Part shown: positions 1,414 through 22,403 of the stretch, piece by piece
Layout: each line of letters opens with the position of its first letter
How positions within the stretch are numbered: the first letter of the stretch is position 1
From: a virus
IMG/VR virus record: IMGVR_UViG_3300019360_000287
Location: 1-23,247 of that record
Length of the DNA: 23,247 bases
Reading direction: 5' to 3' (one strand)
Translations under genes and position numbers: made by a program
The notes under the pieces: generated by a model
Database searches by the model: none
Told to the model about the DNA's origin: nothing
Seen by the model: only the letters and a program-made list of their open reading frames with translations

Positions 1414-3593
1414 TGACCGATTACGAAACCAAAGACGGCGACGAGACGGCGTCGCCGGGAGATCGCAATGCCAAGTACTGGTTGGATTGCATCAGCGATG
1501 CGCAAAAGTTCTTTGCCTTCTGGAACGAGAAGTCCGACTCGATCGACAAGCTCTATGCCGACCTCAAGAGAATGGCGGCCATCAATGCCGATCGCGAATA
1601 CAAGATGTTCTGGGCGAATCTGGAGGTGTTGAAGCCCGCGATGTATTCGAGGGCCCCGGTGCCGGTCGTGGTACCGCGTTGGACAGATCAAAAAGAACTG
1701 CCCCGCAAGGCGTCCGAAATGCTCGAGCGCGCGCTCATCCTCAATTTCGAGGAGATCGACATCGACACGATCATGCTGCAGGTCCGCGATGATCTGGCTG
1801 CGGTAGGCCGCGGTATTGCCTGGGTCAGGCTTGAAGAGGCGGACGGCGGCGACCGCAATGTCATCGACCACTTGGACCGGGCTGATTTCCTGCACGAGCC
1901 CGCCCGCAAATGGGCGGAAGTCGGCTGGGTGGCGAAGCGCGCCTGGCTGACGCGTGAGCAGGTCCGCGCCCGTTTCGGCGACGAGATTGCCCAGAGCATC
2001 AAGCTGAAGAAACCGAAGGATGCCAAGGGCGAGGTGCAGATTCCCGACTACAAGGGCGAGAGCAAGGCGGAGGTCTGGGAAATCTGGTCAAAGATGCGCG
2101 GCCTCGTCGTCTGGGTATCGCCCGGTGTCGAGGAGGTTCTGGACGCCAGGGACCCTTACCTGAAGCTCGACAAGTTCTTTCCGTGTCCGAAGCCCGCCTA
2201 TGCCACAGTGGAGCGACGCTCGCTCGTTCCGGTGCCCGACTTCTATTATTATCGCGATCAGCTCGAGGAGATTAATGAGCTTACGGCGCGCATCTCATCA
2301 CTGGCCGAGGCGCTGAAGCTCAAGGGCTTTTATCCGAGCGGCGCCGGCGATCTGGCCGAGGCCATCGAGGCGGCGCTCAAGGATACGAGCAACAACGCGC
2401 GCCTCATCCCGGTTGCCAATTACCAGAACCTGGGCGGCGCCTCGCTCAGGGACAGCGTCGTCTGGCTGCCGATCGTCGAGGTGGCGAACACCATCACCTC
2501 GCTTGTGGCACTCCGGCGGCAGTTGATCGATGATGTTTATCAGATCAGCGGCATTTCCGACATCATGCGCGGCGCCACCGATCCGGAGGAGACGCTGGGC
2601 GCCCAGCGTCTCAAGAGCCAATACGGCTCGATCCGCATTCGCGACCGGCAAAGCGAGCTGGTGCGCTTCGCGCGCGACCTGACGCGCATCTCGGCCGAGA
2701 TCATGGCGGAGAATTATACGCCCCGGCAATTCGCCGATGTGGCGCAAATGGATCTGCCGACCGAGGCCGACATTGCCGGGCGGGTGAAGGCTTTGGGCCA
2801 GCAGGCGCTGGCGTATCTGGAATCGCCCGAAGGCCAAGAGCTGCAGCAGAATCCCGAAGCGCTGACCAAGGCGAAGGCGCAGATGAACGGGCAGATCCAA
2901 CAACTTCAGGCCACGGTCACCATGGAAAAGATCGTCGACCTGCTGCGTGAACAGCGCATCCGGCCTTTCGTGCTGGAGATCGAAACCGATTCGACGATCC
3001 AGCCGGACGAGAATGCCGAGAAGGCGAGCCGAACCGAGTTTTTGGGTGCGCTCAGCGGCGCCATGCAGCAACTGGTGCCCCTGGTGGCGCAACAGCCCGC
3101 CACGGCGCCGTTTGCGGCCGAGACGCTCAAATTTGCCGTGGCGCCCTTCCGCGCCGGCCGCGCCCTCGCAGGCGCCATCGAGCAATTCGCCGAGACGGTG
3201 AAGAACCAGGCGCTGCAGGCACAACAGAGCCCACAGTCGAGCCCCGAACAGATCAAGGCGCAACAGGAAGACAAGAAGCTCGCACTCGACAAGCAGAAAC
3301 ACGACGACGAAATAGCCGTGCGCCGGCAGGAGATCGCGCATCGGCAACGGCTCGAGGCGCGACAAGCGCGTGCCGATGCCGAATTGGCACAGGTCGATCC
3401 AACGGGTGAGAGCGAACCCGCACAGGCGTTGCCCTCCGCCTATTCCCAGCAGGAGATGCTGGAACAACTGGCAGCCGGTCAATTGCAGATCGCCGGGGCC
3501 ATTGGCCAACTTGCGCAAGCGATTGCCGCGCCAAAGTCTGTCACGACGCCCGACGGTCGCATCTATACCACGGCTCCAGCGAGGATGAATTAA
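1413..3593 (+). CDS. Portal protein (P22 gp1-like)
   Basis: The portal is the dodecameric ring at one capsid vertex through which DNA enters and leaves, and it docks the terminase and later the adaptor. The product is 726 residues, close to the P22 portal (about 725). It lies directly after terL with a TGATG overlap. It begins with an alpha-helical segment rich in aromatic residues (YWLDCISDAQKFFAFWNE from about residue 22). After about residue 610 it becomes a long, strongly charged, Gln/Lys/Arg/Glu-rich helical tail that resembles the C-terminal barrel of P22-type portals. Homology was recognised by sequence style, position and length; no search was run. The long minus-strand open frames here are shadows caused by GC-rich codon positions. 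Confidence 0.88.
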   Translation: MTDYETKDGDETASPGDRNAKYWLDCISDAQKFFAFWNEKSDSIDKLYADLKRMAAINADREYKMFWANLEVLKPAMYSRAPVPVVVPRWTDQKELPRKASEMLERALILNFEEIDIDTIMLQVRDDLAAVGRGIAWVRLEEADGGDRNVIDHLDRADFLHEPARKWAEVGWVAKRAWLTREQVRARFGDEIAQSIKLKKPKDAKGEVQIPDYKGESKAEVWEIWSKMRGLVVWVSPGVEEVLDARDPYLKLDKFFPCPKPAYATVERRSLVPVPDFYYYRDQLEEINELTARISSLAEALKLKGFYPSGAGDLAEAIEAALKDTSNNARLIPVANYQNLGGASLRDSVVWLPIVEVANTITSLVALRRQLIDDVYQISGISDIMRGATDPEETLGAQRLKSQYGSIRIRDRQSELVRFARDLTRISAEIMAENYTPRQFADVAQMDLPTEADIAGRVKALGQQALAYLESPEGQELQQNPEALTKAKAQMNGQIQQLQATVTMEKIVDLLREQRIRPFVLEIETDSTIQPDENAEKASRTEFLGALSGAMQQLVPLVAQQPATAPFAAETLKFAVAPFRAGRALAGAIEQFAETVKNQALQAQQSPQSSPEQIKAQQEDKKLALDKQKHDDEIAVRRQEIAHRQRLEARQARADAELAQVDPTGESEPAQALPSAYSQQEMLEQLAAGQLQIAGAIGQLAQAIAAPKSVTTPDGRIYTTAPARMN

Positions 3594-3594
3594 T

Positions 3595-4002
3595 ATGACC
3601 CTTCAATATTCGACCACCGTGCGCAATGCCAAGCTCGACGCCGTCGAAACGGCAATCGGCACCTCGGCCGTCCTGAAGATCAGGACCGGGGCTGCACCGG
3701 CGAACTGCGCCGCAGCGGATTCGGGAACGGTCCTCGCCACCGTTAACCTGCCGTCCGACTGGATGGCGGCTGCTTCGGGCGGCACTAAAGCCAAGTTGGG
3801 CACATGGGAAGATCTTTCTGCCGACAATAACGGCACCGCTGCTCATTTCCGGCTCTATGCGTCTGATGGCACGACCTGCCATGCACAGGGCACCGTTACC
3901 CTAACGGGCGGCGGCGGCGACATGACAGTGGACTCGACATCGTTCACTGCCGGCCAGGCCTTTACCGTCACCACCTTCACACTCACGGCGGGCAATCCCT
4001 GA
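3595..4002 (+). CDS. Small beta-rich virion protein, unknown role
   Basis: The product is 135 residues, rich in Thr, Ala and Gly, with no signal peptide or membrane segment. The pattern RNAKLDAVETAIGTSAVLKI near the N-terminus followed by alternating Thr/Val strands is a style seen in short structural proteins of many tailed phages. I cannot assign it to a named component; a head decoration or neck protein is possible. The ATG sits one base after the portal stop (taa 3591-3593), with a GAGG ribosome site inside the end of the portal gene. The stop overlaps the next start (TGATG at 4000-4004), so it is translated as part of the portal block. Confidence 0.7.
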   Translation: MTLQYSTTVRNAKLDAVETAIGTSAVLKIRTGAAPANCAAADSGTVLATVNLPSDWMAAASGGTKAKLGTWEDLSADNNGTAAHFRLYASDGTTCHAQGTVTLTGGGGDMTVDSTSFTAGQAFTVTTFTLTAGNP

Positions 4003-4847
4003 TGCTCAATGCCACCATAGGGCCGGAATTCGGTTTTCGGTATACGAACTTCTCTACTCCGACGGCACCCCCATTTGGCGCGACTGTAGTCCCCGGAACT
4101 TCAAATGCCGAGGGCAACTGGACGCAGATAGCCTCTGCAGCAAATATAGCTGTGACGGTATTCGGCCTGGAGCTTGGTGTTAACACGGGGTCTGGGTCTG
4201 GTGTTGCCCGCAACATGCTGCTCGACGTGGGCATAGATCCCGCAGGCGGCACTTCTTACACGGCCATAATTTCGAACTTGGTGTGCGGCGCTTCTGGCAA
4301 TACTGGTGGCGGCGGGCGCATTTTCTATTTTCCAATTTACATCCCTGCGGGAGCGTCGGTCGCGGTCAGGGTGCAGAACAGCCACACCGTAGCTGGCGCA
4401 CTCGGTGTAATCGCTAAATTCTACGGGAGCCCCCAGCGCCCAGAACTAGCCCGCGCTGGCAGTTTCTCTGAGACTATTGGCACGATTATAAACAGCAATG
4501 GCGTGGCATTTGTTCCAGGCACATCGGCTGCTGAGGGTTCCTGGACGTTGCTGGGCACGACAAGCAAGGAGCTGTGGTGGTGGCAGGTGGGGGTTCAGGT
4601 GGATGATGCCACGATGACTGGCCAAAGTCTGCTGGTTGATCTTGCCTACGGTGACGCGTCGAACAAAGTTATAATTATAGACAACTTCCTGCAATCTCTG
4701 ACGGCTACGGAGGCAATTAATCATGTCTGCGCTTTGAATGCCTATAAGCGCGTCCCCGGTGGGTCGAACATTTACGTCCGGGGTTCAATCGATTCAGCCA
4801 CTGCAGATAGCAATTATAACGCTGTGGCTGTGGGGATCGGGGGATGA
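4002..4847 (+). CDS. Virion protein made of two related halves
   Basis: The product is 281 residues, Gly/Ser/Thr/Ala-rich and probably all-beta, function unknown. It is an internal duplication: VPGTSNAEGNWT at residues 30-41 recurs as VPGTSAAEGSWT at 161-172. Other pairs follow in the same order: LLDVGIDPAGGTSY (73-86) with LVDLAYGDASNKV (201-213), and YIPAGASVAVRVQNS (113-127) with KRVPGGSNIYVRGSI (239-253). Such twin-jelly-roll arrangements are common in capsid spikes, head fibres and adhesins, so a surface-exposed structural protein is my inference. Codon use is more AT-rich than in the neighbouring portal and scaffold genes (many ATA, AAT, TAT), suggesting a separately acquired segment. 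The start overlaps the previous stop (TGATG). Confidence 0.72.
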   Translation: MLNATIGPEFGFRYTNFSTPTAPPFGATVVPGTSNAEGNWTQIASAANIAVTVFGLELGVNTGSGSGVARNMLLDVGIDPAGGTSYTAIISNLVCGASGNTGGGGRIFYFPIYIPAGASVAVRVQNSHTVAGALGVIAKFYGSPQRPELARAGSFSETIGTIINSNGVAFVPGTSAAEGSWTLLGTTSKELWWWQVGVQVDDATMTGQSLLVDLAYGDASNKVIIIDNFLQSLTATEAINHVCALNAYKRVPGGSNIYVRGSIDSATADSNYNAVAVGIGG

Positions 4848-4856
4848 CGAATGACG

Positions 4857-5171
4857 TCACTCGTTTGTAAGGAGCGAAAGATTGATGAAGGCTTCTCCCA
4901 GCTTGCGCGCCTTGTTGGAGGAGAGACCAACGGCCTGCCATCCGAACGTTGGGTGACGGTAGTTGAGCTGGGCAAGTTTCTCATCTTTGTGAAGCCTGAG
5001 CTCCCAGCGTGGATTCCGCACCATTCGCAGATGCTTAGGGGCCGCTTCTGGGATTTTCGTTCTCATCAGCCCGCGCGTATCCACCAATACGGCAATCAGT
5101 TGTACCAGGGTTGCATCGGTGAACTCGGCCTGCTTCGACTGGCCTTTTTCGTCTGTTATTCGCACGATCAC
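4857..5171 (-). CDS. Minus-strand small gene inside the structural operon
   Basis: This 104-residue product is read against the late operon. The family is not recognised. It starts with GTG at 5171 (a second in-frame GTG lies two codons later) with AGGGG about 9 nt upstream. An in-frame TAG a few codons upstream rules out a longer form. The protein looks genuine: mixed charged and hydrophobic residues, and a motif-like stretch WELRLHKDEKLAQLNYRHP followed by FGWQAVGLSSNKARKLGEAF. The competing + strand frame (4851-5270) has no ribosome site and a shadow-like composition. No membrane segment or signal peptide is seen. The position, opposite strand and AT-richer sequence fit a moron gene (an extra cargo gene) acquired with its left neighbour. 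No convincing promoter was found upstream, and the upstream DNA does not resemble that of the two larger minus-strand cassettes. Confidence 0.5.
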   Translation of the reverse strand: MIVRITDEKGQSKQAEFTDATLVQLIAVLVDTRGLMRTKIPEAAPKHLRMVRNPRWELRLHKDEKLAQLNYRHPTFGWQAVGLSSNKARKLGEAFINLSLLTNE

Positions 5172-12651: not shown

Positions 12652-13091
12652 GGCCGGTTTATGGCAACGATGAAGCTGTGGCGATCCTCGTTTCAGCTCT
12701 CATCGAAGATTGCGACCGGGAGGATTTTGGCGACTGCACGGCCATTGGCGTGACGGACGGCGCTCATCTCGTCGGCGGTTTCGTGTTCCACAACTACAAT
12801 CCAAAGACCGGCGTGATCGAGATCAGCTTTGCCGGAAATAACCGCCGATGGTTGACGCGACCGGTTCTCTATGCGGCTTTCTCCTATGTCTTCGATCAGC
12901 TCGGCTGTCAGCTCGCCGTGGCCCGCACACCGGCCGGGCTGAAGAACGCGGTGCGCATCATAAGGGCCTATGGTTTCGAGCAAGTGACGGTACCGCGGCT
13001 CTTTGGCCGCAGCATGGACGGCATCATTTCGACGCTCACCGCGGAAGCGTGGCGTGCGAATGGTTTTCATAAGGGACACAGTCATGGGTAG
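12648..13091 (+). CDS. GNAT-family N-acetyltransferase-like protein
   Basis: GNAT enzymes move an acetyl group from acetyl-CoA to an amine. The 147-residue product shows the fold's order: an N-terminal helix, a strand pair around GAHLVGGFVFHNYNPKTGVI, a central strand EISFAGNNRRW followed by the helix beginning LTRPVLYAAFSYVF where acetyl-CoA would bind, then the usual late NAVRIIRAYGFE (N..A.....GF). The canonical Q/RxxGxG/A loop is degenerate here. Such genes recur inside the structural operons of podoviruses; the substrate is unknown, and a virion or host protein is possible. The start overlaps the tail gene stop (ATGA) and the 3' end overlaps the next gene by 8 nt. Confidence 0.75.
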   Translation: MRPVYGNDEAVAILVSALIEDCDREDFGDCTAIGVTDGAHLVGGFVFHNYNPKTGVIEISFAGNNRRWLTRPVLYAAFSYVFDQLGCQLAVARTPAGLKNAVRIIRAYGFEQVTVPRLFGRSMDGIISTLTAEAWRANGFHKGHSHG

Positions 13092-14643
13092 CAAGAGCAG
13101 CAAGGCCCCGAAGCCGCCTGATCCGAAGGTGGCGGCGGACGCCCAAGCCAAGATGAACATCGACACAGCCTTGGCTCAAAACGCCATCAACCGCACCAAT
13201 CAGATCACGGATGATGGGTCGATCATCTACACTGAAACGGGAAAACAAACAGTGGGTGGACGGGAGATCCCGATCTACACCGCGACCACAACACTGTCCG
13301 ACGCCCAGAAGCGGATCAAGAACGAGGCCGATGCCGCCAAATACAATCTCGCCAATGCCGCCAACTACTTGTCAGGAAGGATCAACAAGGAGCCCTTCAA
13401 GGTCGATGAGGAGGTGGAGGCGCGGCTCTTCGATCTCGGCAGCAAGCGTCTTGCGCCGCGCCTCGAGGAAGCGCGCCGCCAGGCTGAAACCGATGCCGCC
13501 AATCGCGGCCTTCGCCTGGGGTCTGATGCCTATGATCGGCTCATGCGCCAGGTGGGGGAGAACGAAAACGACGCCTACAATCAGCTCGCCGTGACCGGCC
13601 GCGCGGAAGCCTATGCTGAAGCAGATCGAAATCACACTCGAGATCTCAACTATCTCACGGCGCTGCTTTCGGGCAGCCAGGTCAGCCAGCCCAATTTCGT
13701 CAGCAACACGCCGCAGGCGGGCGTCGCGAACACACCTTACGCTCAAATTATCGATGGCGCTTATCAGAACCAGCTTGCGGCATATCAGCAAGAGCAGGCC
13801 GAGAAGAATGCGATGCTCGGCGGCCTGTTCGGCCTCGCCGGCACGGCGATCGCCTATTCCGACAGGCGGCTGAAGGAAGACATCCACAAGGTTGGCGAGA
13901 CGCCCGATGATCTCGGCATCTACAGCTATCGATACAAGGGCGGCGGCCCGCTGCGTCTCGGTCTCATCGCCCAGGAGGTCGAGAAGGAGAAGCCGGAAGC
14001 GGTCGTCAAAAGCCCGGACGGCTTCAAGATGGTCGACTATCGCAAGGCGCTTCGCCTTGGCGAACGTGCCGGTCAAACGAGCGGCCTTGTGCCGACGCCG
14101 CGGCCTCATCCCTTCCGCGATCCAGACAGGTTCTCTTATTCGCTGGAGCTTGCCGACATGGCGAAAGTGAAAGGGATTCCCGCTTACGATCAGCTTGCTG
14201 AGCGAGTTGCACCTGGCACGCTATCGCGTCTGGCCAATCTTCAGACAATGTTTGGCAAACCGTTTGATGTCTATGGTGCATACAGCCCAGGACATACAAC
14301 TGATTCCCAGCATAAATTGGGAAAGGCCTTTGACATAAACCTTTCCACGTCCATTCCTGAGAGGGCCCGCCTTATCGAGGCCGCGACACAGATGGGTTTT
14401 GCAGGTACAGGCACTTATGACAAAAACATCCCCGGCGTTCCCAATCCGGGTGTTCATATCGACGTTGGCCGGCGGCGTAGTTGGGGTGGGCACACAAAGA
14501 AGACCGGCAGCTTGCCGGCTCCTGACTGGCATAAAGCTGCCATTCGGCGTGGCCTCGCCGCCGGTGAGCCAGATATGGAGGCAATTGCCGCAAAGGTCGC
14601 CGCGGGATATCCGATATACGACCGCTCTGGCCGCCGCCGGTGA
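13084..14643 (+). CDS. Virion protein with S74-type chaperone domain and C-terminal M15 peptidase
   Basis: The product is 519 residues from ATG 13084 (AAGGGA about 7 nt upstream); the longer in-frame start at 13003 would lie inside the GNAT gene. Residues 1-245 are helical and Gln/Ala/Asn-rich, like internal or fibre-base virion proteins. Residues about 259-325 match the intramolecular chaperone/peptidase S74 pattern: SDRRLKEDI, IYSYRYKG, LGLIAQEVE, MVDYRKAL. S259 and K264 sit where the Ser-Lys self-cleavage dyad lies in that family. Residues about 350-470 form a zinc M15 peptidase domain, with SQHKLGKAFDI (H410, D417) and GVHIDVG (H458). The role is inferred: folding or processing of a tail component plus local peptidoglycan cutting during entry. 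DNA after about 14150 is visibly more AT-rich, so the peptidase end may be a recent graft. Confidence 0.82.
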   Translation: MGSKSSKAPKPPDPKVAADAQAKMNIDTALAQNAINRTNQITDDGSIIYTETGKQTVGGREIPIYTATTTLSDAQKRIKNEADAAKYNLANAANYLSGRINKEPFKVDEEVEARLFDLGSKRLAPRLEEARRQAETDAANRGLRLGSDAYDRLMRQVGENENDAYNQLAVTGRAEAYAEADRNHTRDLNYLTALLSGSQVSQPNFVSNTPQAGVANTPYAQIIDGAYQNQLAAYQQEQAEKNAMLGGLFGLAGTAIAYSDRRLKEDIHKVGETPDDLGIYSYRYKGGGPLRLGLIAQEVEKEKPEAVVKSPDGFKMVDYRKALRLGERAGQTSGLVPTPRPHPFRDPDRFSYSLELADMAKVKGIPAYDQLAERVAPGTLSRLANLQTMFGKPFDVYGAYSPGHTTDSQHKLGKAFDINLSTSIPERARLIEAATQMGFAGTGTYDKNIPGVPNPGVHIDVGRRRSWGGHTKKTGSLPAPDWHKAAIRRGLAAGEPDMEAIAAKVAAGYPIYDRSGRRR

Positions 14644-14759
14644 CTGCCGCATGAACCATGATGACCCGGGGGCTTAGCTTGGAAAATGCCTTTCTATCGG
14701 ATATCGGAGCTAAGCGATTCACCATCCATCTGTCATGACTGGCCAAGGATGCGGGTCGG

Positions 14760-15089
14760 TCACGTCTTCTCACAGGGCCAAAAGACTCGATCCCTGTAGA
14801 TTACAATTTCTCGATTGCGGTATTCGATGCCCTCGGTCACATAATCAATGGTGGCAAAAGTCATTTTCTCCATCCAGAATGGGTTACCGTCCGCCAACTT
14901 TAGTGTTTTGTCTCTCAGGCGGAATTCTGGCCCACTTCGAAAAAAGACCAGTTCAGCCGGCTCGTCAGTATCACCAAATCCGTATGAGCAAAATTTGGGA
15001 GTAGGGGAAGCGGCGAGGCAAGCGGCAGCCCCACACATCAAAGCTGCTGAGACCAAGACTATCCGCCTAACTTCGGTGATTAGTGCCAT
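14760..15089 (-). CDS. Small exported two-cysteine protein, paralogue 1 of cassette A
   Basis: This 109-residue product has a Sec signal peptide: basic n-region, hydrophobic core IVLVSAALMCGAAACLA, cleavage likely at about residue 26. The mature part is about 83 residues with two cysteines, one in CSYGF near its start and one in DRVFWPCEK at the end, probably joined by a disulfide in the periplasm or outside the cell. I chose ATG 15089 because GGAG lies 9 nt upstream and the length then equals that of paralogue 2 exactly; an upstream in-frame GTG at 15134 overlaps the preceding stop. It shares roughly 70% of residues with paralogue 2 by eye. The family is not recognised. Convergent with the virion gene ending at 14643. 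Probably lysogen-expressed cargo. Confidence 0.75.
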   Translation of the reverse strand: MALITEVRRIVLVSAALMCGAAACLAASPTPKFCSYGFGDTDEPAELVFFRSGPEFRLRDKTLKLADGNPFWMEKMTFATIDYVTEGIEYRNREIVIYRDRVFWPCEKT

Positions 15090-15130
15090 TTGTAGCCACT
15101 CCAAGGATCCACCCTCAGGATCGGCATTGG

Positions 15131-15460
15131 TCACATCTTCTCACAGGGCCAGAAGACCCGATCCAAATAGATCACGATTCGCTGGTTACGGTACTCGATG
15201 CCTTCGGTCCAGTAACTGATCGTGGCAAAGGTCACGGTTTCCTCCCAGATTCCGTGTTCCTCAGCCAGCCTTACCGTCTTGCCTTGGAGACGAAGCTCCG
15301 GATTGCCACGAAAGAAAACCAGCTCGGCAGGTTTGTCGCCCTGATCAAATCCGTATGAGCACCATTTGGGAGTAGGAGGGGCGGCGAGGCAGGTGACAGC
15401 CCCATACATCAAAGCTGCTGAGACTAAGGCTATCCGCCCGACGTCGATGATCGGTGTCAT
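15131..15460 (-). CDS. Small exported two-cysteine protein, paralogue 2 of cassette A
   Basis: The product is 109 residues from ATG 15460, with signal peptide core IALVSAALMYGAVTCLA followed by APPTPKWCSYGF. The mature protein alternates likely beta-strands (PAELVFFRG, ELRLQGKTVRL, VTFATISYW, EGIEYRNQRIVIYLD) and ends DRVFWPCEK, so the two cysteines bracket the fold. The ribosome site before 15460 is weak. A longer in-frame ATG at 15538 overlaps the ancestral stop of paralogue 3 (ATGA), so coupled initiation there, giving 26 extra residues, is possible; a signal peptide that begins at 15460 argues for the shorter form. Identity to paralogue 1 is highest in the final 30 residues. Function unknown. 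Confidence 0.75.
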   Translation of the reverse strand: MTPIIDVGRIALVSAALMYGAVTCLAAPPTPKWCSYGFDQGDKPAELVFFRGNPELRLQGKTVRLAEEHGIWEETVTFATISYWTEGIEYRNQRIVIYLDRVFWPCEKM

Positions 15461-15534
15461 GATTAAGGACCGGATGAAAGCATTGCACGGAGAGAATGAA
15501 CAGGGCTTCAAGGCCGTTGCAGAATTGCCTTGGG

Positions 15535-15887
15535 TCATTTGGCCTCACAGGGCCAGAAAACTCGGTCTTCAAACAGGATCACTTCGTCTTCACCCAGCTT
15601 GACGGCATAGACGTCGCTTTGATTCTTTCGCCGGTCTCTGTACTTTCGTCTCCAACAAAAATGATTCCGTCGACGCCATCGATCGGCTCATGTGCAGAGT
15701 ATTCTGTAGTCTCTTCCCCGATGGTCACGGTCATCTGCCCAGAATTGAAAACGATCTCAGCCGGCTTCTCAAATCCGCTGGAACAGTAGCGAATGTTATC
15801 GGCGGGGAATGCGTGCGCGCTCACTGCACCGCACATGGGAACCGCTAAGTTCAGAGCTATCCGTATGATGTGAGCATATGGAACCAT
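15535..15887 (-). pseudogene. Frameshifted third paralogue of the exported two-cysteine protein
   Basis: The open frame from ATG 15887 (AGGAG 7 nt upstream) runs 102 codons to a stop at 15579. It gives a signal peptide (RIALNLAVPMCGAVSAHA) and the family hallmark CSSGFEKPAEIVF. Its last residues (MPSSWVKTK) do not match the family. In another frame, from about 15620 down to a TGA at 15535-15537, the DNA encodes VYAVKLGEDEVILFEDRVFW followed by PCEAK, which is the conserved family C-terminus with the second cysteine. The two parts are therefore one gene split by a 1-nt deletion or 2-nt insertion around 15615-15640. It could be inactive, a truncated functional variant without the disulfide, or a sequencing error. 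It is the promoter-proximal gene of the cassette and the most diverged copy. Confidence 0.7.
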
Positions 15888-15908
15888 TCGCAGCTCCTGT
15901 CAGAATTT

Positions 15909-16163: not shown

Positions 16164-16646
16164 ATGGCTTTCAACTTATTCGGTGGAAACAGCACGATCA
16201 AATCGCCTGAGCAATTGGCCGAACGCCGCGCGCTGGTGCGGTCACTGATGGCGCGTCAGCTCGGCCAGCGGCCCCGCGACATGTGGGATGGGATCAATAA
16301 TCTCGTGGGCGCGATCGGCAGCCGGGTTGCGGAAAATCAATTCGACAAGGCGGAGGCTGAAGGGCAGGCGGGAGCGGAAAGCGCCCTGCGACCGTTCAAT
16401 GAGGCCTTGGCGAACAAGCGAACCCCGGATCTCGGCATGCTCACGGGTGTCCTCTCCAATCCTTGGGTCAAACCTGGTCAGCGTTCGGTTGCCGAAGATC
16501 TCTACAAGCAGCAGCTCGAAGCGAACCAGCCCATGACGCCGTATCAGAAGGCACTGCTCGATCTCGATGAGAGGAAGCTCGCTCAATCGCGCACGGCGCC
16601 AAGCGGCAATATCGTTAAGCTCGATAGCCAAGGGAACACGCGATAA
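16164..16646 (+). CDS. Probable internal virion / ejection-associated protein
   Basis: The product is 160 residues from ATG 16164, preceded by GAGGA at about 8 nt. Longer in-frame starts at 16068 lack a ribosome site. It starts MAFNLFGGNSTIKSPEQLAE, has a basic N-terminal helix and an amphipathic helix (MWDGINNLVGAIGSRVAENQ, about residues 50-69), then Ala/Glu-rich helices and an acidic tail. The stop overlaps the start of the 649-residue protein (TAATG). Short helical proteins before a long hydrophobic-patch protein resemble the ejection-protein sets (such as P22 gp7/gp20/gp16) that form a channel through the cell envelope; this is a context-based inference. Confidence 0.6.
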   Translation: MAFNLFGGNSTIKSPEQLAERRALVRSLMARQLGQRPRDMWDGINNLVGAIGSRVAENQFDKAEAEGQAGAESALRPFNEALANKRTPDLGMLTGVLSNPWVKPGQRSVAEDLYKQQLEANQPMTPYQKALLDLDERKLAQSRTAPSGNIVKLDSQGNTR

Positions 16647-18595
16647 TGCAAATTCCTCTGAAGGATGGCCGCATTCTCGACATCGAGACCGATGATATGA
16701 CGACTGCGCTACAAGCCACGCAGTCGTTCCTCGATCGCGAGAAGGCGCGGGTCCGCATTGATGCTGAAGACAAGCAGCGCGGTTCGTTCGGAAACTTCAC
16801 GAAGGGCTTGTCCGATGGCACGATGCAGATCGCGTCGAATATTCCACTCATCGGCGGCTTCATGGATGAGGGAAATGCCGCTTTGATCACCGGCCTCGGC
16901 CAGTTTGGCGACTATGGCGAGGAGCTCGAATATCAGCGCGAACGCCAGGAACAAGCAACACAGCGCTCGCGCCTCGCCACTGCGGCTAACGCAACTGCCG
17001 GCACGATGCTGGGTGGTATGGGCCTCGTCAAGGCAGTGCCAGCAAAGGTGGCCCAGGCGATGCCGCAGTCATTCCCTGGGCGCATAGGAGCCGGCATGGG
17101 CATCGGCGCAGCAGGCGGCGCGATCGAGGGATTCGGGCGCGGCGAAGGTGGGCTCGCTAATCGCCTTGCTGTTGCCGCGCCGTCTGCTCTTTTCGGCGGT
17201 GTAGCGGGCGGCCTCGTCCCGGCAATTGCAAAGGGTATCGGCATGGCCTGGAATGGCGTAGCCTCAGCTCTAGCCGATCTCGGCGCCGATGCTAAATCGG
17301 TCAAGGTCATGATCGATCAGCTACAAGCCAATGGGTATACGCCCCAGCAAGCGCAAATTCGTCTGCAAGAGATGGGGCCTGTAGCCATGCCTGCCGACAT
17401 CACGCCGGGCATGCAGGTTTTCACCGGCGGAACGGCAGCCGCTGACCCTGCGGCCGGCAATCTCATCGGGCAAAGGCTGAAGAATCGCCGCGAAGCAGCG
17501 CCAGCGCGCGTCAATCGGGTGCTCGACAAGACTTTGGGCCCCCCGCGCGATCCCTATACCCAGATGCAGACGAATAAAGCCGAACGAGCAAAGATTAGCC
17601 CTCAATATGAGACAGCGCTGACCAACGCTCCATCGCTTCCGACGGAAACAGGCGACATTCTTGCCAGGCGATTGAATTTCATCGGGCGCTCAAAGGAGAA
17701 CCGCGCGGTGTTTGGGAAATGGCTCGACCAGATCGATGACGCGCTGCTTGCCGACACTCCGGAGGACGTGGCGCGCCGCCTGCAGAATGTTAAATTCGGA
17801 CTCGCGGAGGAGATCAAGAGAGATGAAATGAAGCGCTTCGGCCTCAGTAGCAACGGGAAGGATGAACAGAAGGTCTATGGCAAGCTCATCCACGCGGTAG
17901 ACGATATCCTGAAGAGCCACATCCCGGGCTATCGCGAAGCAGATGAGGCCTTTGCCCCGATAGCGCGCCAGCAGGCGGCATATGACAAGGGCCGCAAGGT
18001 CCTTTCAAACAAGATATCCGCCGCTGAGCACCGGGATGATGTCGCCGGCTACTCCCCGGAAGAGAAGGCGATGAACAATGCCGGCTTGCGCTACGAGTTC
18101 GATCGCCGCCTTGCCGCTCAGCGTGGCAGCCCCGGTATTGCCGCCAACAGGATCCTGGCCGAGGACAGCAACACAGCGAAGATCACGGCATCAATCGGTG
18201 ACGCCAAGAGCGAGCGGTTGCGCCGCGGCATCGCGCCCGAAAAAGTCTTTATCGAGACATCCAATCTCGCAGAGCACGGCCGTCAAAGCCGCACTGCCGT
18301 GATCGACGCGGCGCGGGAATTTTGGGGCAAGGGCGGCAAGCCTAGTTTGGTCAGGGACACCATCAACTTCTTGACGAAATCGCCTGCCGTCATTCGGAAG
18401 ACGGCGGACAATCTGACCAAGACCGACACTGCGCGCGATGAGCTGATACGCGCCTTGATGAATGCTGCCGATGCCTTTCCGAGGCGGTCGCAGGCGGCGA
18501 ACCATGTGCGAAACCTTGTCGAGGCGCTCCTGCTCACTCAGGCGGGTCGAGCCGGGTATGAAACTCAGAAGCTCCTCTTTGGTGGTCCTCGGTAG
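16646..18595 (+). CDS. Large ejection / internal virion protein
   Basis: The 649-residue protein has a helical N-terminus beginning MQIPLKDGRILDIETDDMTT and several Gly/Ala-rich hydrophobic stretches between about 60 and 225 (IGAGMGIGAAGGAIEGFG, ALFGGVAGGLVPAIAKGIGM) that could insert in a membrane. The rest, after about 230, is long, charged and helical. This build is typical of podovirus internal proteins injected ahead of the DNA, though no named family is certain. The last 20 codons (from 18534) are antisense to the last 20 codons of a minus-strand membrane protein gene, giving a 62-nt tail-to-tail overlap. A duplicate of this 3' end, LLLTQAGRAGYETQK through the stop, sits downstream at about 18955-19024. 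Confidence 0.68.
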   Translation: MQIPLKDGRILDIETDDMTTALQATQSFLDREKARVRIDAEDKQRGSFGNFTKGLSDGTMQIASNIPLIGGFMDEGNAALITGLGQFGDYGEELEYQRERQEQATQRSRLATAANATAGTMLGGMGLVKAVPAKVAQAMPQSFPGRIGAGMGIGAAGGAIEGFGRGEGGLANRLAVAAPSALFGGVAGGLVPAIAKGIGMAWNGVASALADLGADAKSVKVMIDQLQANGYTPQQAQIRLQEMGPVAMPADITPGMQVFTGGTAAADPAAGNLIGQRLKNRREAAPARVNRVLDKTLGPPRDPYTQMQTNKAERAKISPQYETALTNAPSLPTETGDILARRLNFIGRSKENRAVFGKWLDQIDDALLADTPEDVARRLQNVKFGLAEEIKRDEMKRFGLSSNGKDEQKVYGKLIHAVDDILKSHIPGYREADEAFAPIARQQAAYDKGRKVLSNKISAAEHRDDVAGYSPEEKAMNNAGLRYEFDRRLAAQRGSPGIAANRILAEDSNTAKITASIGDAKSERLRRGIAPEKVFIETSNLAEHGRQSRTAVIDAAREFWGKGGKPSLVRDTINFLTKSPAVIRKTADNLTKTDTARDELIRALMNAADAFPRRSQAANHVRNLVEALLLTQAGRAGYETQKLLFGGPR

Positions 18596-18947
18596 GCGCT
18601 TTCGGCAGGAACTTCGCGTACCACCGGTCAAACTTGCTTTCAGGATCAAGATGCAGCTTGCCTTGCCTGTACTCGAATCTGTCGATGAGCCAACTCGCAA
18701 GCAGACCAATCGCTATCACTGGCAGAGCCAGCCACATATCGATCTCGTAGACAAGGTGATGAAGCCCCCAGCCCAGGATTGTCATCACGACGATGAAAGA
18801 GACGATACAGCAGACCAGGTAGCCGGTCCGGCTCATCGGCAGGCACATCACGAACAGATATGCGACATATCCGGCCATGCCCAGCACGGCGATGATGATG
18901 GCAACGACTATAGGGTCCATACCAGCCATGTCGAATGGAGAAACCAT
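18534..18947 (-). CDS. Three-helix membrane protein, copy 1 of cassette B
   Basis: The product is 137 residues from ATG 18947, chosen because AGGAG (18957-18961 on the complement) lies 9 nt upstream; the next in-frame ATG, at 18929, matches the start of copy 2. Three hydrophobic segments follow (PIVVAIIIAVLGMAGYVAYL, YLVCCIVSFIVVMTILGWGL, MWLALPVIAIGLLASWLI) and then a soluble charged C-terminal half with ESKFDRWYAKFLPK. It is probably an inner-membrane protein; the family is not recognised. The gene lies 16 nt after the stop of copy 2 on the same strand and must be co-transcribed with it. Its last 62 nt overlap the 3' end of the convergent ejection-protein gene. A role in blocking superinfection or altering the envelope is guessed from gene context only. 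Confidence 0.75.
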   Translation of the reverse strand: MVSPFDMAGMDPIVVAIIIAVLGMAGYVAYLFVMCLPMSRTGYLVCCIVSFIVVMTILGWGLHHLVYEIDMWLALPVIAIGLLASWLIDRFEYRQGKLHLDPESKFDRWYAKFLPKAPTEDHQRGASEFHTRLDPPE

Positions 18948-18963
18948 GTCGGAACGCTCCTGC

Positions 18964-19362
18964 TCACTCAGGCGGGTCGAGCCGGGTATGAGACTCAGAA
19001 GCTTGTTTTTGGTGGTCCTCGTTAGGCGCCTTCGACAGGAACTTCACGTAGTACCACTGGTCAAACTTGCTTTCAGGATTGAGACGTAGCGTGCCCTGCC
19101 TGTACTCGTGCCTGTCGACAAGCCAGCCGTAGAGGAGCAGCAGCGCCATGATAGGCAAAGCCAGCCACATATTGATCTCGTAGATGAGATAATGGAGTCC
19201 CCAATTCGCAATCGTCATGACGACCAGAAATGAGGCAGCGCAGCACACCAGGTAGCCCGTCCGGCTCATCGGCAGGCACATCACGAACAGATATGCGACA
19301 TATCCGGCCATGCCCAGCACGGCGATGATGATGGCAATGACTATAGGGTCCATACCAGCCAT
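18964..19362 (-). CDS. Three-helix membrane protein, copy 2 of cassette B
   Basis: The product is 132 residues from ATG 19362, which shares a base with the TGA of the 33-codon gene before it (TGATG); an ATG two codons earlier (19368) is also in frame. Hydrophobic segments are at about 7-30, 37-56 and 65-82, followed by a roughly 50-residue polar tail containing PESKFDQWYYVKFL and ending THTRLDPPE-like (SHTRLDPPE). The first 40 residues are nearly identical to copy 1; the second and third helices are more diverged. Both copies keep Cys residues in MCLP and LVCC. Function unknown; the duplication suggests either dosage or a hetero-oligomer. Confidence 0.77.
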   Translation of the reverse strand: MAGMDPIVIAIIIAVLGMAGYVAYLFVMCLPMSRTGYLVCCAASFLVVMTIANWGLHYLIYEINMWLALPIMALLLLYGWLVDRHEYRQGTLRLNPESKFDQWYYVKFLSKAPNEDHQKQASESHTRLDPPE

Positions 19363-19463
19363 CACCATTTCTCTGGCATCTCGCCGGCATGAACGCCGAG
19401 AGAGAAAAAGATTGCATCGGTTATGCCCGCAGATACGGCCACAAGAATGGGTAAATACCTCAT
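19362..19463 (-). CDS. 33-residue hydrophobic peptide gene, first in cassette B
   Basis: A short frame begins ATG at 19463 and ends TGA at 19362-19364. The peptide starts MRYLPILVAVSAGITDAIFF, continues SLGVHAGEMPEKW, and has one hydrophobic stretch of about 20 residues. GGAG lies 8 nt upstream, inside GGAGAGAAGG. Its stop overlaps the start of the next gene (TGATG), so at minimum it is a leader whose translation feeds the first membrane protein. It may also be a small membrane peptide in its own right. It is the only candidate start between the predicted promoter and the membrane-protein genes with a good ribosome site. Confidence 0.6.
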   Translation of the reverse strand: MRYLPILVAVSAGITDAIFFSLGVHAGEMPEKW

Positions 19464-19707: not shown

Positions 19708-20574
19708 ATGCCCCGCAACGGATCAGGCGTGTACGGCGCGCCGGCCGGCACAACGGCCACGCCCAACACGCCCATCGAAAGCGCCAAATACAATGCCTAT
19801 GTCGCCGACAATGCCGAGGCGATGACCAACAGCATCAATGTGAACGGCACGGCACCCTGGCAGGCCAACCAGCCCATGGCCGGCTTCAAATTCACAAACC
19901 AGGGTGCGGGAACGGCGGCGACCGACAGCGCCAATCTGGGGCAGGTGCAATCCGACATCGTTGCGCATGCTGCATCTGTCGGCGGCTCCGCCGATGCCGT
20001 CACCGCCATCTTCGCACCGGCCTTCACGGCCTATACCGCCAAGATGCGATTCCGCTTCACCGCCGGTGCGGCGAATACGTCCGTCAATCCGACCATCAGT
20101 GTCGACGGGCTGGGCGCGAAGACGATCAAGAAGCTGAACGGCGTCGCCTTGGCGATCGGCGACATTACGGGCTCGGGCCACATCTGCGATTGCGTCTACA
20201 ACGGCACCGATGCCATCCTGCTGAACCCCAATGTCGGCGGAACATCATTTGAACCGCTGGGCGAATATTCGGCCGTCAATGACCAGACCGGCACGACCTA
20301 TACATTCGCGCTGACCGACAAGGGCCGCCTGGTCTCGGGCAGCAATGCCTCCGCCATCACCTGGACCGTGCCGCCCAATTCGTCGGTCGCCTTCCCGGTG
20401 AAGTCGAAGATCGACTGGTGGCAGAAGGGCGTAGGCCGGATCACCTTCACGCAGGGTGCCGGCGTCACGCTTCGTCCCGCCAACAACTACAAGGCGCGCA
20501 CGCAGTATTCGGCCGGATCGCTGATCAAGATCGCGACCGATGAATGGCTGCTCATCGGGGACATTGTGCCATGA
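19708..20574 (+). CDS. Tail fibre / receptor-binding-type protein
   Basis: The product is 288 residues. The N-terminus MPRNGSGVYGAPAGTTATPN and the following SAKYNAYVADNAEAMTNSIN resemble the virion-attachment end of tail fibres I associate with alphaproteobacterial phages. It is followed by GTAPWQANQPMAGFKFTNQG and SANLGQVQ, typical fibre repeats, then beta-rich domains with KMRFRFTAGAANTSVNPTI and a C-terminal beta domain ending EWLLIGDIVP. It starts after GAGG at about 6 nt. The stop overlaps the next gene (ATGATG at 20571-20576). Its job is presumably host recognition; the receptor is unknown. Confidence 0.78.
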   Translation: MPRNGSGVYGAPAGTTATPNTPIESAKYNAYVADNAEAMTNSINVNGTAPWQANQPMAGFKFTNQGAGTAATDSANLGQVQSDIVAHAASVGGSADAVTAIFAPAFTAYTAKMRFRFTAGAANTSVNPTISVDGLGAKTIKKLNGVALAIGDITGSGHICDCVYNGTDAILLNPNVGGTSFEPLGEYSAVNDQTGTTYTFALTDKGRLVSGSNASAITWTVPPNSSVAFPVKSKIDWWQKGVGRITFTQGAGVTLRPANNYKARTQYSAGSLIKIATDEWLLIGDIVP

Positions 20575-21269: not shown

Positions 21270-21446
21270 ATGACCGCTCTCGCGAACTTCGCCATTGCCG
21301 GCGCGGCAATCATCTCTCCCTGGTGGATCAGGATGCTGTTTGACGTGTCCGCAGCTGCCGCGCTGTTGCTCCCGATCTTCGGTCTTTTGCTTGCCGTCCT
21401 GCAGATCATCAAGCTTCTGCGGGATTGGCGGAAGCCGAAGCACTAG
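21270..21446 (+). CDS. 58-residue putative holin
   Basis: Holins form the membrane hole that times lysis. The 58-codon frame begins MTALANFAIAGAAIISPWWI, has a strong hydrophobic helix at about 27-49 (SAAAALLLPIFGLLLAVL then QIIKLL) and ends with the basic tail RDWRKPKH. The first 20 residues form a weaker second hydrophobic segment. It lies 3 nt after the previous stop and 30 nt before an exported protease, at the head of the lysis module. Size, charged C-terminus and place support a holin or holin-like protein. Its ribosome site is weak (GGTGGG), consistent with coupling to the upstream gene. An alternative is a small membrane regulator. Confidence 0.6.
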   Translation: MTALANFAIAGAAIISPWWIRMLFDVSAAAALLLPIFGLLLAVLQIIKLLRDWRKPKH

Positions 21447-21476: not shown

Positions 21477-22403
21477 ATGACAGTCCAGAAGTGGCTGATC
21501 GCGGCCCTTTGCGCATTCGGTATCATGGCCATGCTCGCCAATATCAAGTCCTGCTCGGCGGCAGAGGCGGCCCCGCAATGGAGCATTGACGCCATCAATG
21601 ATTATATAGACAAAGCTAACGTCCTCGTTGGCGATGAGGATGGGGATTTCTGCTCCGGCACGGTGATCTCCATCCCGAACCGATTCATCCTGACGGCGGA
21701 CCATTGCGTCAGGAACCGGATTCGCCGCGAGCAAAAGGAGTTCGTCGATCCGATCACTGGCGTGGTCACGACCGCCACCGTCGAGCGCCGCCTGGATCTG
21801 GTCGTCTCCAAGAACATCGTCAAGAACTACGAGATCGTCTCTCGGCAAAGCCTGACAGCGAAGATATGGGCACGAGACCCCGAGAACGACGTCGCCATTC
21901 TCCAGATCGTCGACCCGGAATATCTCCCAAGCTATGCCGCCACGCTTGCGCCCGACGACTACAGGCTCAAGCGCGGCGAGACCATCTATGTCGTGGGCAA
22001 TCCCGGCGTCGAGTTCGACAACTCGCTCACCAAGGGTATCGTCTCCGCCACGGAACGCACCCTGGACTTCGGCAGCGGCAAGAAGATCAAGGTCTTTCAG
22101 ATCGACGCCGTGGCCATCGGCGGCAACTCCGGCGGTTCGGTACTCAACGAGCAGGGGCAGATTGTCGGCACGCTCGACGCCGGCCTTCGTGGTGCCGGGA
22201 TCAACTTTGTCGTTCCGATCGCGGCAACCAAGAAACTCTTGAAGAACAAGGGCTTCAAAGACACGAACGGCCCGGGCATCGCCAAGAACAGTGCGACGAA
22301 GATTGACGAGAGAAAGAGCAGCGGTCCTGGTCAGGTCATCACCATGGACCTCGAGACATGGCCGCGCATCTTCCATCGCATCATGGATAGGATGGCCCAA
22401 TGA
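21477..22403 (+). CDS. Exported trypsin-like serine protease (S1/HtrA-like, no PDZ)
   Basis: The product is 308 residues with a signal peptide or N-terminal anchor (KWLIAALCAFGIMAMLA, then SCSAAEAAP). The trypsin-fold triad is complete: H76 in LTADHC, D138 in ENDVAIL, and S218 in IGGNSGGSVL. C59 and C77 flank the catalytic histidine, as in the classical trypsin disulfide, which requires an oxidising compartment such as the periplasm. The last 60 residues are a polar tail with no PDZ domain. It sits between putative holin and endolysin (ATGA overlap with the latter), behind an AGGAA ribosome site. Substrate unknown: a role in lysis, in degrading envelope or phage proteins, or as cargo are all possible. 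Confidence 0.85.
   Translation: MTVQKWLIAALCAFGIMAMLANIKSCSAAEAAPQWSIDAINDYIDKANVLVGDEDGDFCSGTVISIPNRFILTADHCVRNRIRREQKEFVDPITGVVTTATVERRLDLVVSKNIVKNYEIVSRQSLTAKIWARDPENDVAILQIVDPEYLPSYAATLAPDDYRLKRGETIYVVGNPGVEFDNSLTKGIVSATERTLDFGSGKKIKVFQIDAVAIGGNSGGSVLNEQGQIVGTLDAGLRGAGINFVVPIAATKKLLKNKGFKDTNGPGIAKNSATKIDERKSSGPGQVITMDLETWPRIFHRIMDRMAQ

What the first reader, a model, noticed from the sequence alone, without database searches (positions are those of the whole stretch)
18525..19024. Membrane-gene cassette carries an orphan copy of the neighbouring virion gene's 3' end
Downstream of the ejection-protein gene, at 18955-19024, lies a second copy of its final 22 codons with the stop preserved (LLLTQAGRAGYETQK...). 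The duplicated unit is therefore virion-gene tail plus membrane gene. Either a simple tandem duplication happened, or each incoming cassette recombined using the virion-gene 3' end as an anchor and left a copy behind. The second reading would be a general route for stacking cargo genes at one site without disrupting the virion gene.
Basis: partly seen in the sequence, partly recalled or inferred. Interest (0 to 1): 0.7.

Follow-up and report, generated by a model that had tools for sequence, protein, structure and literature searches.

The report
Duplicated antisense membrane gene beside ejection gene
The "orphan" copy of a phage particle gene's end is really the tail of a duplicated membrane-protein gene read from the opposite strand; related phages keep similar small membrane genes overlapping the end of this particle gene, a place where a known phage (P22) keeps a gene that shuts out competing phages.

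Summary
The repeat is real: the virion gene's last 22 codons and stop recur at 18957-19025 (64/69 nt, 21/22 residues). It is not an orphan. The membrane gene lies on the minus strand, and its last 20 codons plus stop are antisense to the virion gene's 3' end (18534-18595). Duplicating the membrane gene copies that stretch. The 18964-19025 copy is the C-terminal coding end of membrane copy 2 (19362->18964), followed by a possible ribosome site for copy 1 (18947->18534). Relatives polarise this. One phage has the same virion tail with no membrane gene; another has one shorter membrane gene overlapping by only 20 nt. The virion tail is therefore native, and one local tandem duplication plus partial gene conversion is enough. 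Cassette stacking at an anchor is unsupported.

The surroundings are more interesting. In 22 of 30 non-redundant related phage sites with room for a gene, a minus-strand small transmembrane ORF from unrelated-looking families overlaps this virion gene's 3' end by 4-131 nt (shuffles: mean 2.3, max 7). A lipoprotein or secreted gene often precedes it. Position, strand and topology resemble P22 sieA, a DNA-ejection-blocking exclusion gene, but there is no sequence homology. A superinfection-exclusion role is my best guess (about 0.5).

The parts
16646..18595 (+). Internal virion (probable DNA-ejection) protein gene, 649 aa, last long gene before the tail-fibre gene
   Evidence: PHROG 5880, E 1.4e-44; synteny with portal, coat and fibre genes in relatives; predicted mostly helical. 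'Ejection' is inferred from position and helicity; no characterised relative.
18534..18947 (-). Membrane gene copy 1 (137 aa from ATG 18947; internal ATG 18929 matches the start of copy 2); 3 hydrophobic helices plus charged C-terminal tail
   Evidence: ORF; dN/dS against copy 2 is 0.26 outside the overlap; homologue in IMGVR_UViG_3300010052_000006; low-confidence model with 3 helices
18964..19368 (-). Membrane gene copy 2 (134 aa from ATG 19368; coupled start ATG 19362, MAGMDP..)
   Evidence: ORF and alignment
18534..18595 (.). 62-nt tail-to-tail overlap of virion gene and membrane copy 1
18957..19025 (+).
18926..18959 (.). Duplication junction: CCAT shared by the membrane start (..ACCAGCCAT) and the virion gene (..AACCATGTGCG); carries a candidate start region for copy 1 derived from antisense virion sequence (Shine-Dalgarno-like GCAGGAG on the minus strand just to the right)
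   Evidence: Sequence comparison; the mechanism is inferred
19362..19463 (-). 33-aa signal-peptide-like leader ORF (MRYLPILVAVSAGITDAIFFSLGVHAGEMPEKW) with an AGGAG-type site; its TGA overlaps ATG 19362 of copy 2 (TGATG)
   Evidence: Sequence; position of the secreted or lipoprotein partner gene in relatives
19708..20574 (+). Tail-fibre-type gene (MPRNGS N-terminus), right-hand border of the site and anchor of the surveys
   Evidence: PHROG tail-fibre matches; conserved anchor

Best explanation
Anatomy (shown): a minus-strand operon, leader -> membrane copy 2 -> membrane copy 1, runs into the 3' end of the probable ejection-protein gene. The membrane gene's last 20 codons and stop are antisense to that gene's conserved C-terminal codons. 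Origin (inferred): a single tandem duplication of about 430 bp, perhaps by illegitimate recombination at a CCAT microhomology between the virion gene (near 18502) and the membrane start codon, doubled the membrane gene and with it the virion tail. That tail now encodes the end of copy 2 and a possible ribosome-binding region for copy 1. Later gene conversion kept the ends alike while the centre diverged, and both copies stayed under purifying selection. Function (inferred, about 0.5): a prophage-expressed small inner-membrane superinfection-exclusion protein that works like P22 SieA, blocking DNA delivery by related phages through contact with their ejection proteins. The duplicate would broaden or strengthen exclusion.
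For: Antisense overlap and repeat. Polarity: a prophage of Rhizobiales bacterium Y(2018) (L142; virion gene 51% identical) keeps the same tail (LLLSTQAGRVGFESQHLIAGGPR*) with no transmembrane gene before the fibre gene. IMGVR_UViG_3300010052_000006 (L141) has one membrane homologue, same site and strand, ending before the extra C-terminus and overlapping by 20 nt. Selection: copies dN/dS 0.26, neighbouring-family ORFs 0.01-0.10 outside the overlap. Mosaic divergence, 0/500 permutations. General architecture: 14/23 sites versus shuffle mean 2.07; second anchor set, 22/30 sites with gap >=150 nt versus mean 2.32, max 7, and >=2 TM 14 versus 0.025; all 22 overlap the virion gene by 4-131 nt. P22: gene 16 (+) ends 13313, sieA (-) 13830-13336, then mnt/arc/ant and tailspike gene 9. 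[quoted passage not shown] escape mutations lie in the C-terminal regions of gp16 and gp20, and sieA-like genes consistently lie between genes 16 and 9 (PMC10883804).
Against: No detectable homology of the membrane protein to P22 SieA (hhalign probability 0.2%) or to any Pfam or PHROG family. The virion protein has no solved structural match and no confident ejection annotation. No terminator, and no convincing promoter upstream of the operon, was found. No sequence close enough exists to time the duplication. Tail differences are mostly synonymous in the virion frame (4 synonymous, 1 non-synonymous) and all non-synonymous in the membrane frame, which pure in-situ duplication does not obviously predict, though only about 5 sites are involved.
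Confidence: 0.75

Rival explanations
1. Hetero-allelic origin: copy 1 and copy 2 come from two related phages joined by an unequal crossover (membrane start of one, virion 3' end of the other). The divergence then predates the tandem arrangement and the second copy arrived with its own virion tail. This is a weak form of the reader's second reading.
For: Central dS is high while the ends are near identical; tail differences look virion-constrained.
Against: Gene conversion between old tandem copies gives the same pattern; no donor phage with a copy-1-like or copy-2-like single gene was found; only about 5 informative tail sites.
Confidence: 0.2
2. Anchor-mediated stacking: the virion 3' end is a recombination anchor by which successive cargo cassettes are added, each leaving a virion tail behind.
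For: Many different small membrane genes, lipoprotein genes and an HNH gene occupy the same site in relatives, so the site does turn over.
Against: In all relatives inspected the virion gene occurs once with a single tail and the TM gene overlaps it directly; no stacked cassettes bounded by tails. The tail copy is fully explained as membrane-gene coding sequence.
Confidence: 0.05
3. The membrane proteins are lysis proteins (holin, antiholin or spanin-like) rather than exclusion proteins.
For: Small 2-3 TM proteins, often next to a lipoprotein or secreted protein.
Against: They lie on the strand opposite to the late genes; the + strand has a 58-aa holin-like ORF (21270-21446) shortly before a phage lysozyme (22400-23077); families change freely between relatives.
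Confidence: 0.15
4. The minus-strand ORFs are chance open frames in a high-GC virion gene.
For: High-GC DNA gives many antisense ORFs.
Against: 22/30 versus 2.3 expected sites, low dN/dS outside the overlap, 60% conservation of the RHph_I3_18 ORF in another prophage.
Confidence: 0.03

Closest known systems
P22 SieA superinfection exclusion (Leavitt et al. 2024, PMC10883804)
   Same: Minus-strand small inner-membrane-type protein with about 3 TM helices, directly after the last ejection gene and before the tail spike or fibre; several mutually diverged families at one site, some with an extra N-terminal TM
   Different: No sequence homology; here the gene overlaps the virion gene (4-170 nt in relatives) whereas P22 leaves a 22-nt gap; often paired with a lipoprotein or secreted gene; here duplicated; no exclusion shown
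Phage morons / lysogenic-conversion genes
   Same: Separate small transcription unit between late genes on the opposite strand, variable among relatives
   Different: Morons normally sit between genes; here the 3' end is embedded in the virion gene, and no promoter or terminator was identified
Rhizobium phage RHph_I3_18 (MN988542) and EBPR podovirus 2 (JF412295) loci
   Same: Lipoprotein gene plus unannotated 2-TM ORF on the minus strand overlapping the virion gene 3' end (152 and 32 nt)
   Different: Different membrane-protein families; single copy

Membership tests
P22 SieA family | Sequence similarity to a SieA type | tested here: not met
   hhalign probability 0.2% against P22 SieA only; types B and C were not compared
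P22 SieA family | Position between the last ejection gene and the tailspike, opposite strand | tested here: met
   (that the upstream gene is an ejection gene is itself inferred)
P22 SieA family | Inner-membrane protein with multiple TM helices | tested here: inconclusive
   Hydropathy and a low-confidence model give three helices; localisation untested
P22 SieA family | Prophage-expressed block of related phage DNA ejection | not testable with these tools
   Needs lysogen or plasmid plating assays
Moron (lysogenic-conversion cargo) | Extra gene present in some and absent in otherwise syntenic relatives | tested here: met
   Absent in L142 and L155, present in L141 and window
Moron (lysogenic-conversion cargo) | Own promoter and terminator | tested here: inconclusive
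   0 terminator-like sites; the only promoter-like minus-strand match lies at the start of copy 1, not upstream of the operon; sigma-70 consensus scan only, which may not fit this host
Phage ejection protein (P22 gp16 type) for the virion gene | Profile or fold match to a characterised ejection protein | tested here: not met
   PHROG 5880 is of unknown function, P22 gp16 falls in phrog_770; no PDB fold hit

The most novel reading that the evidence does not exclude
A widespread, mostly unannotated class of small membrane exclusion genes has its 3' end written antisense into the ejection-protein gene's C-terminal codons. The overlap would physically lock each exclusion protein to the ejection C-terminus it must discriminate, so that target and immunity co-segregate in mosaic phages.
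Probability: 0.25. Interest if true: 0.75.

Novelty: new variant of a known kind. Interest (0 to 1): 0.5.

Why it matters
It removes a false lead (an anchor mechanism for stacking cargo) and shows how a convergent overlap turns an ordinary gene duplication into an apparent orphan fragment. It also points to a large, mostly unannotated set of small membrane genes at one fixed site in podovirus-like phages, many of them prophages of Alphaproteobacteria. If they exclude competitors as SieA does, the overlap with the ejection gene makes linkage of immunity and target directly testable.

Tried and rejected
Searches with the single membrane or virion protein found no relatives in viral contigs, GTDB genomes or phages; a coat-protein profile was needed. 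A membrane profile in 397 genomes of the order of G009 found nothing, nor did a virion search of 69 family genomes beyond the known one, nor a 3-sequence profile in viral contigs beyond the known homologue. RNA structure at the junction: not above shuffles. Fold search of the virion model: no PDB match, only uncharacterised phage proteins. The membrane model was too weak to fold-search (pLDDT 60). SieA homology rejected. Anchor stacking rejected for lack of stacked loci.

Full report
Observation. The window is a 23,247-base IMG/VR virus record carrying a podovirus-like late region: terminase, portal, scaffold-like, coat and neck genes, an S74 protein, a 649-aa internal virion protein (16646-18595), a fibre gene, protease and lysozyme. 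The last 22 codons and stop of the 649-aa gene recur at 18957-19025 with 64/69 nt and 21/22 residues identical. They are part of an approximately 430-bp direct repeat, 18502-18930 versus 18926-19363.

What the tail copy is. The membrane gene is on the minus strand. Copy 1 (18947->18534) overlaps the virion gene tail-to-tail by 62 nt, so its last 20 codons (..EDHQRGASEFHTRLDPPE*) are the reverse complement of the virion tail. Copy 2 (19362 or 19368->18964) has the same C-terminus (..EDHQKQASESHTRLDPPE*). The 'orphan' is therefore the coding end of copy 2 plus about 25 nt beyond its stop. Those extra bases contain TGAGCAGGAGCGTTCCGACATG (minus strand), a plausible ribosome site and start for copy 1 (sequence; inference). 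Upstream, a 33-aa signal-peptide-like leader ends in TGATG, overlapping the start of copy 2 and suggesting translational coupling (sequence; inference).

Which gene owns the tail. Coat-protein profile searches gave 17 genome and 80 viral loci. In the prophage of Rhizobiales bacterium Y(2018), the virion homologue (51%) ends LLLSTQAGRVGFESQHLIAGGPR* and is followed, 216 nt later, by the fibre gene with no detectable transmembrane gene. In IMGVR_UViG_3300010052_000006 a single homologous membrane gene (about 37%) sits at the same place and strand, ends ..RKHLLPTEDRD*, lacks the extra C-terminus and overlaps by 20 nt. The virion C-terminus is thus native, and the window's membrane gene has a C-terminal extension written antisense into it. 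States of zero, one and two copies are seen, but the one-copy and two-copy states each in a single record.

How the copies arose. Copies 1 and 2 are 80% identical at protein level and clearly closest to each other. The junction reads ..ACCAGCCAT|GTCGAATGGAGAAACC.., sharing CCAT with the virion gene (AACCATGTGCG) and with the start codon region of copy 2 (ACCAGCCATCACC). A single illegitimate tandem duplication suffices. Divergence is uneven: the first 22 codons have no synonymous difference, the centre is 67% identical, the last 20 codons have no synonymous difference in the membrane frame (0 of 500 permutations reach the observed clustering). I read this as gene conversion between old copies. 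A crossover between two related phages is a live rival (0.2). The tail differences are mostly synonymous in the virion frame, which would fit that rival, but rest on about five sites.

The site in relatives. I listed minus-strand ORFs between the virion gene and the fibre gene. In a first set of 23 sites, 14 had a transmembrane ORF reaching the virion 3' end (shuffle mean 2.07, max 7); with two or more helices, 10 versus 0.045. A second set, collected with the fibre N-terminus as anchor, gave 58 non-redundant sites; 22 of the 30 with a gap of at least 150 nt carry such an ORF (shuffle mean 2.32, max 7; two or more helices, 14 versus 0.025). Some phages are in both sets, and the first 23 sites were chosen by me from loci where both border genes could be recognised. 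All 22 overlap the virion gene by 4-131 nt. Several unrelated-looking families occur, for example one with an N-terminal IDHDPxE motif and one ending DPSSRPRGS (by eye). A lipoprotein or secreted protein gene often lies upstream on the same strand. Outside the overlap, dN/dS is 0.01-0.10 in one family and 0.50 for the RHph_I3_18 pair. The RHph_I3_18 and EBPR podovirus 2 members are not annotated in their records.

Likely function. In P22, sieA is on the minus strand 22 nt after gene 16, and the mnt/arc/ant genes and tailspike gene 9 follow. [quoted passage not shown] escape mutations map to the C-terminal regions of gp16 and gp20, and sieA-like genes of three types about 25% identical keep this position (PMC10883804). 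The window genes share position, orientation, size class and helix number, but not sequence. The virion gene could not be confirmed as an ejection protein. I therefore say 'works like SieA' with about 0.5 confidence and do not file it as a SieA.

Verdict. The stacking mechanism is not needed. The broader conserved architecture is the part worth follow-up.

Noticed in passing
window 14746-15900 (-): A second minus-strand cluster between the S74 gene and the next late gene: three tandem, diverged genes for small secreted proteins (repeat units 72-81% alike, C-termini ending FWPCEK in two).
   Followed up: partly
window 13003-14643 (+): The S74-chaperone virion protein carries an extra C-terminal M15-type peptidase-like region; the RHph_I3_18 homologue stops before it.
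   Followed up: partly
window 4857-5171 (-): Isolated 104-aa minus-strand ORF between late genes, another possible cargo gene.
   Followed up: no
window 21477-22403 (+): Trypsin-like serine protease gene between a holin-like ORF and the lysozyme; a similar gene lies downstream of the fibre gene in L141 and L142.
   Followed up: partly
L014 16276-16593 (-) and EBPR podovirus 2 JF412295 (L152): Unannotated 2-TM genes overlapping the virion gene 3' end in public phage records.
   Followed up: yes
L147 3414-3968 (-): An HNH-type homing-endonuclease-like gene (by eye) occupies the partner position in the minus-strand cassette of a Rhizobiales prophage.
   Followed up: no
L142 554-2263 and L141 (reverse) 3098-4648: The virion gene homologues lack or have replaced the central third present in the window protein (569 and 516 aa versus 649 aa).
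   Followed up: no
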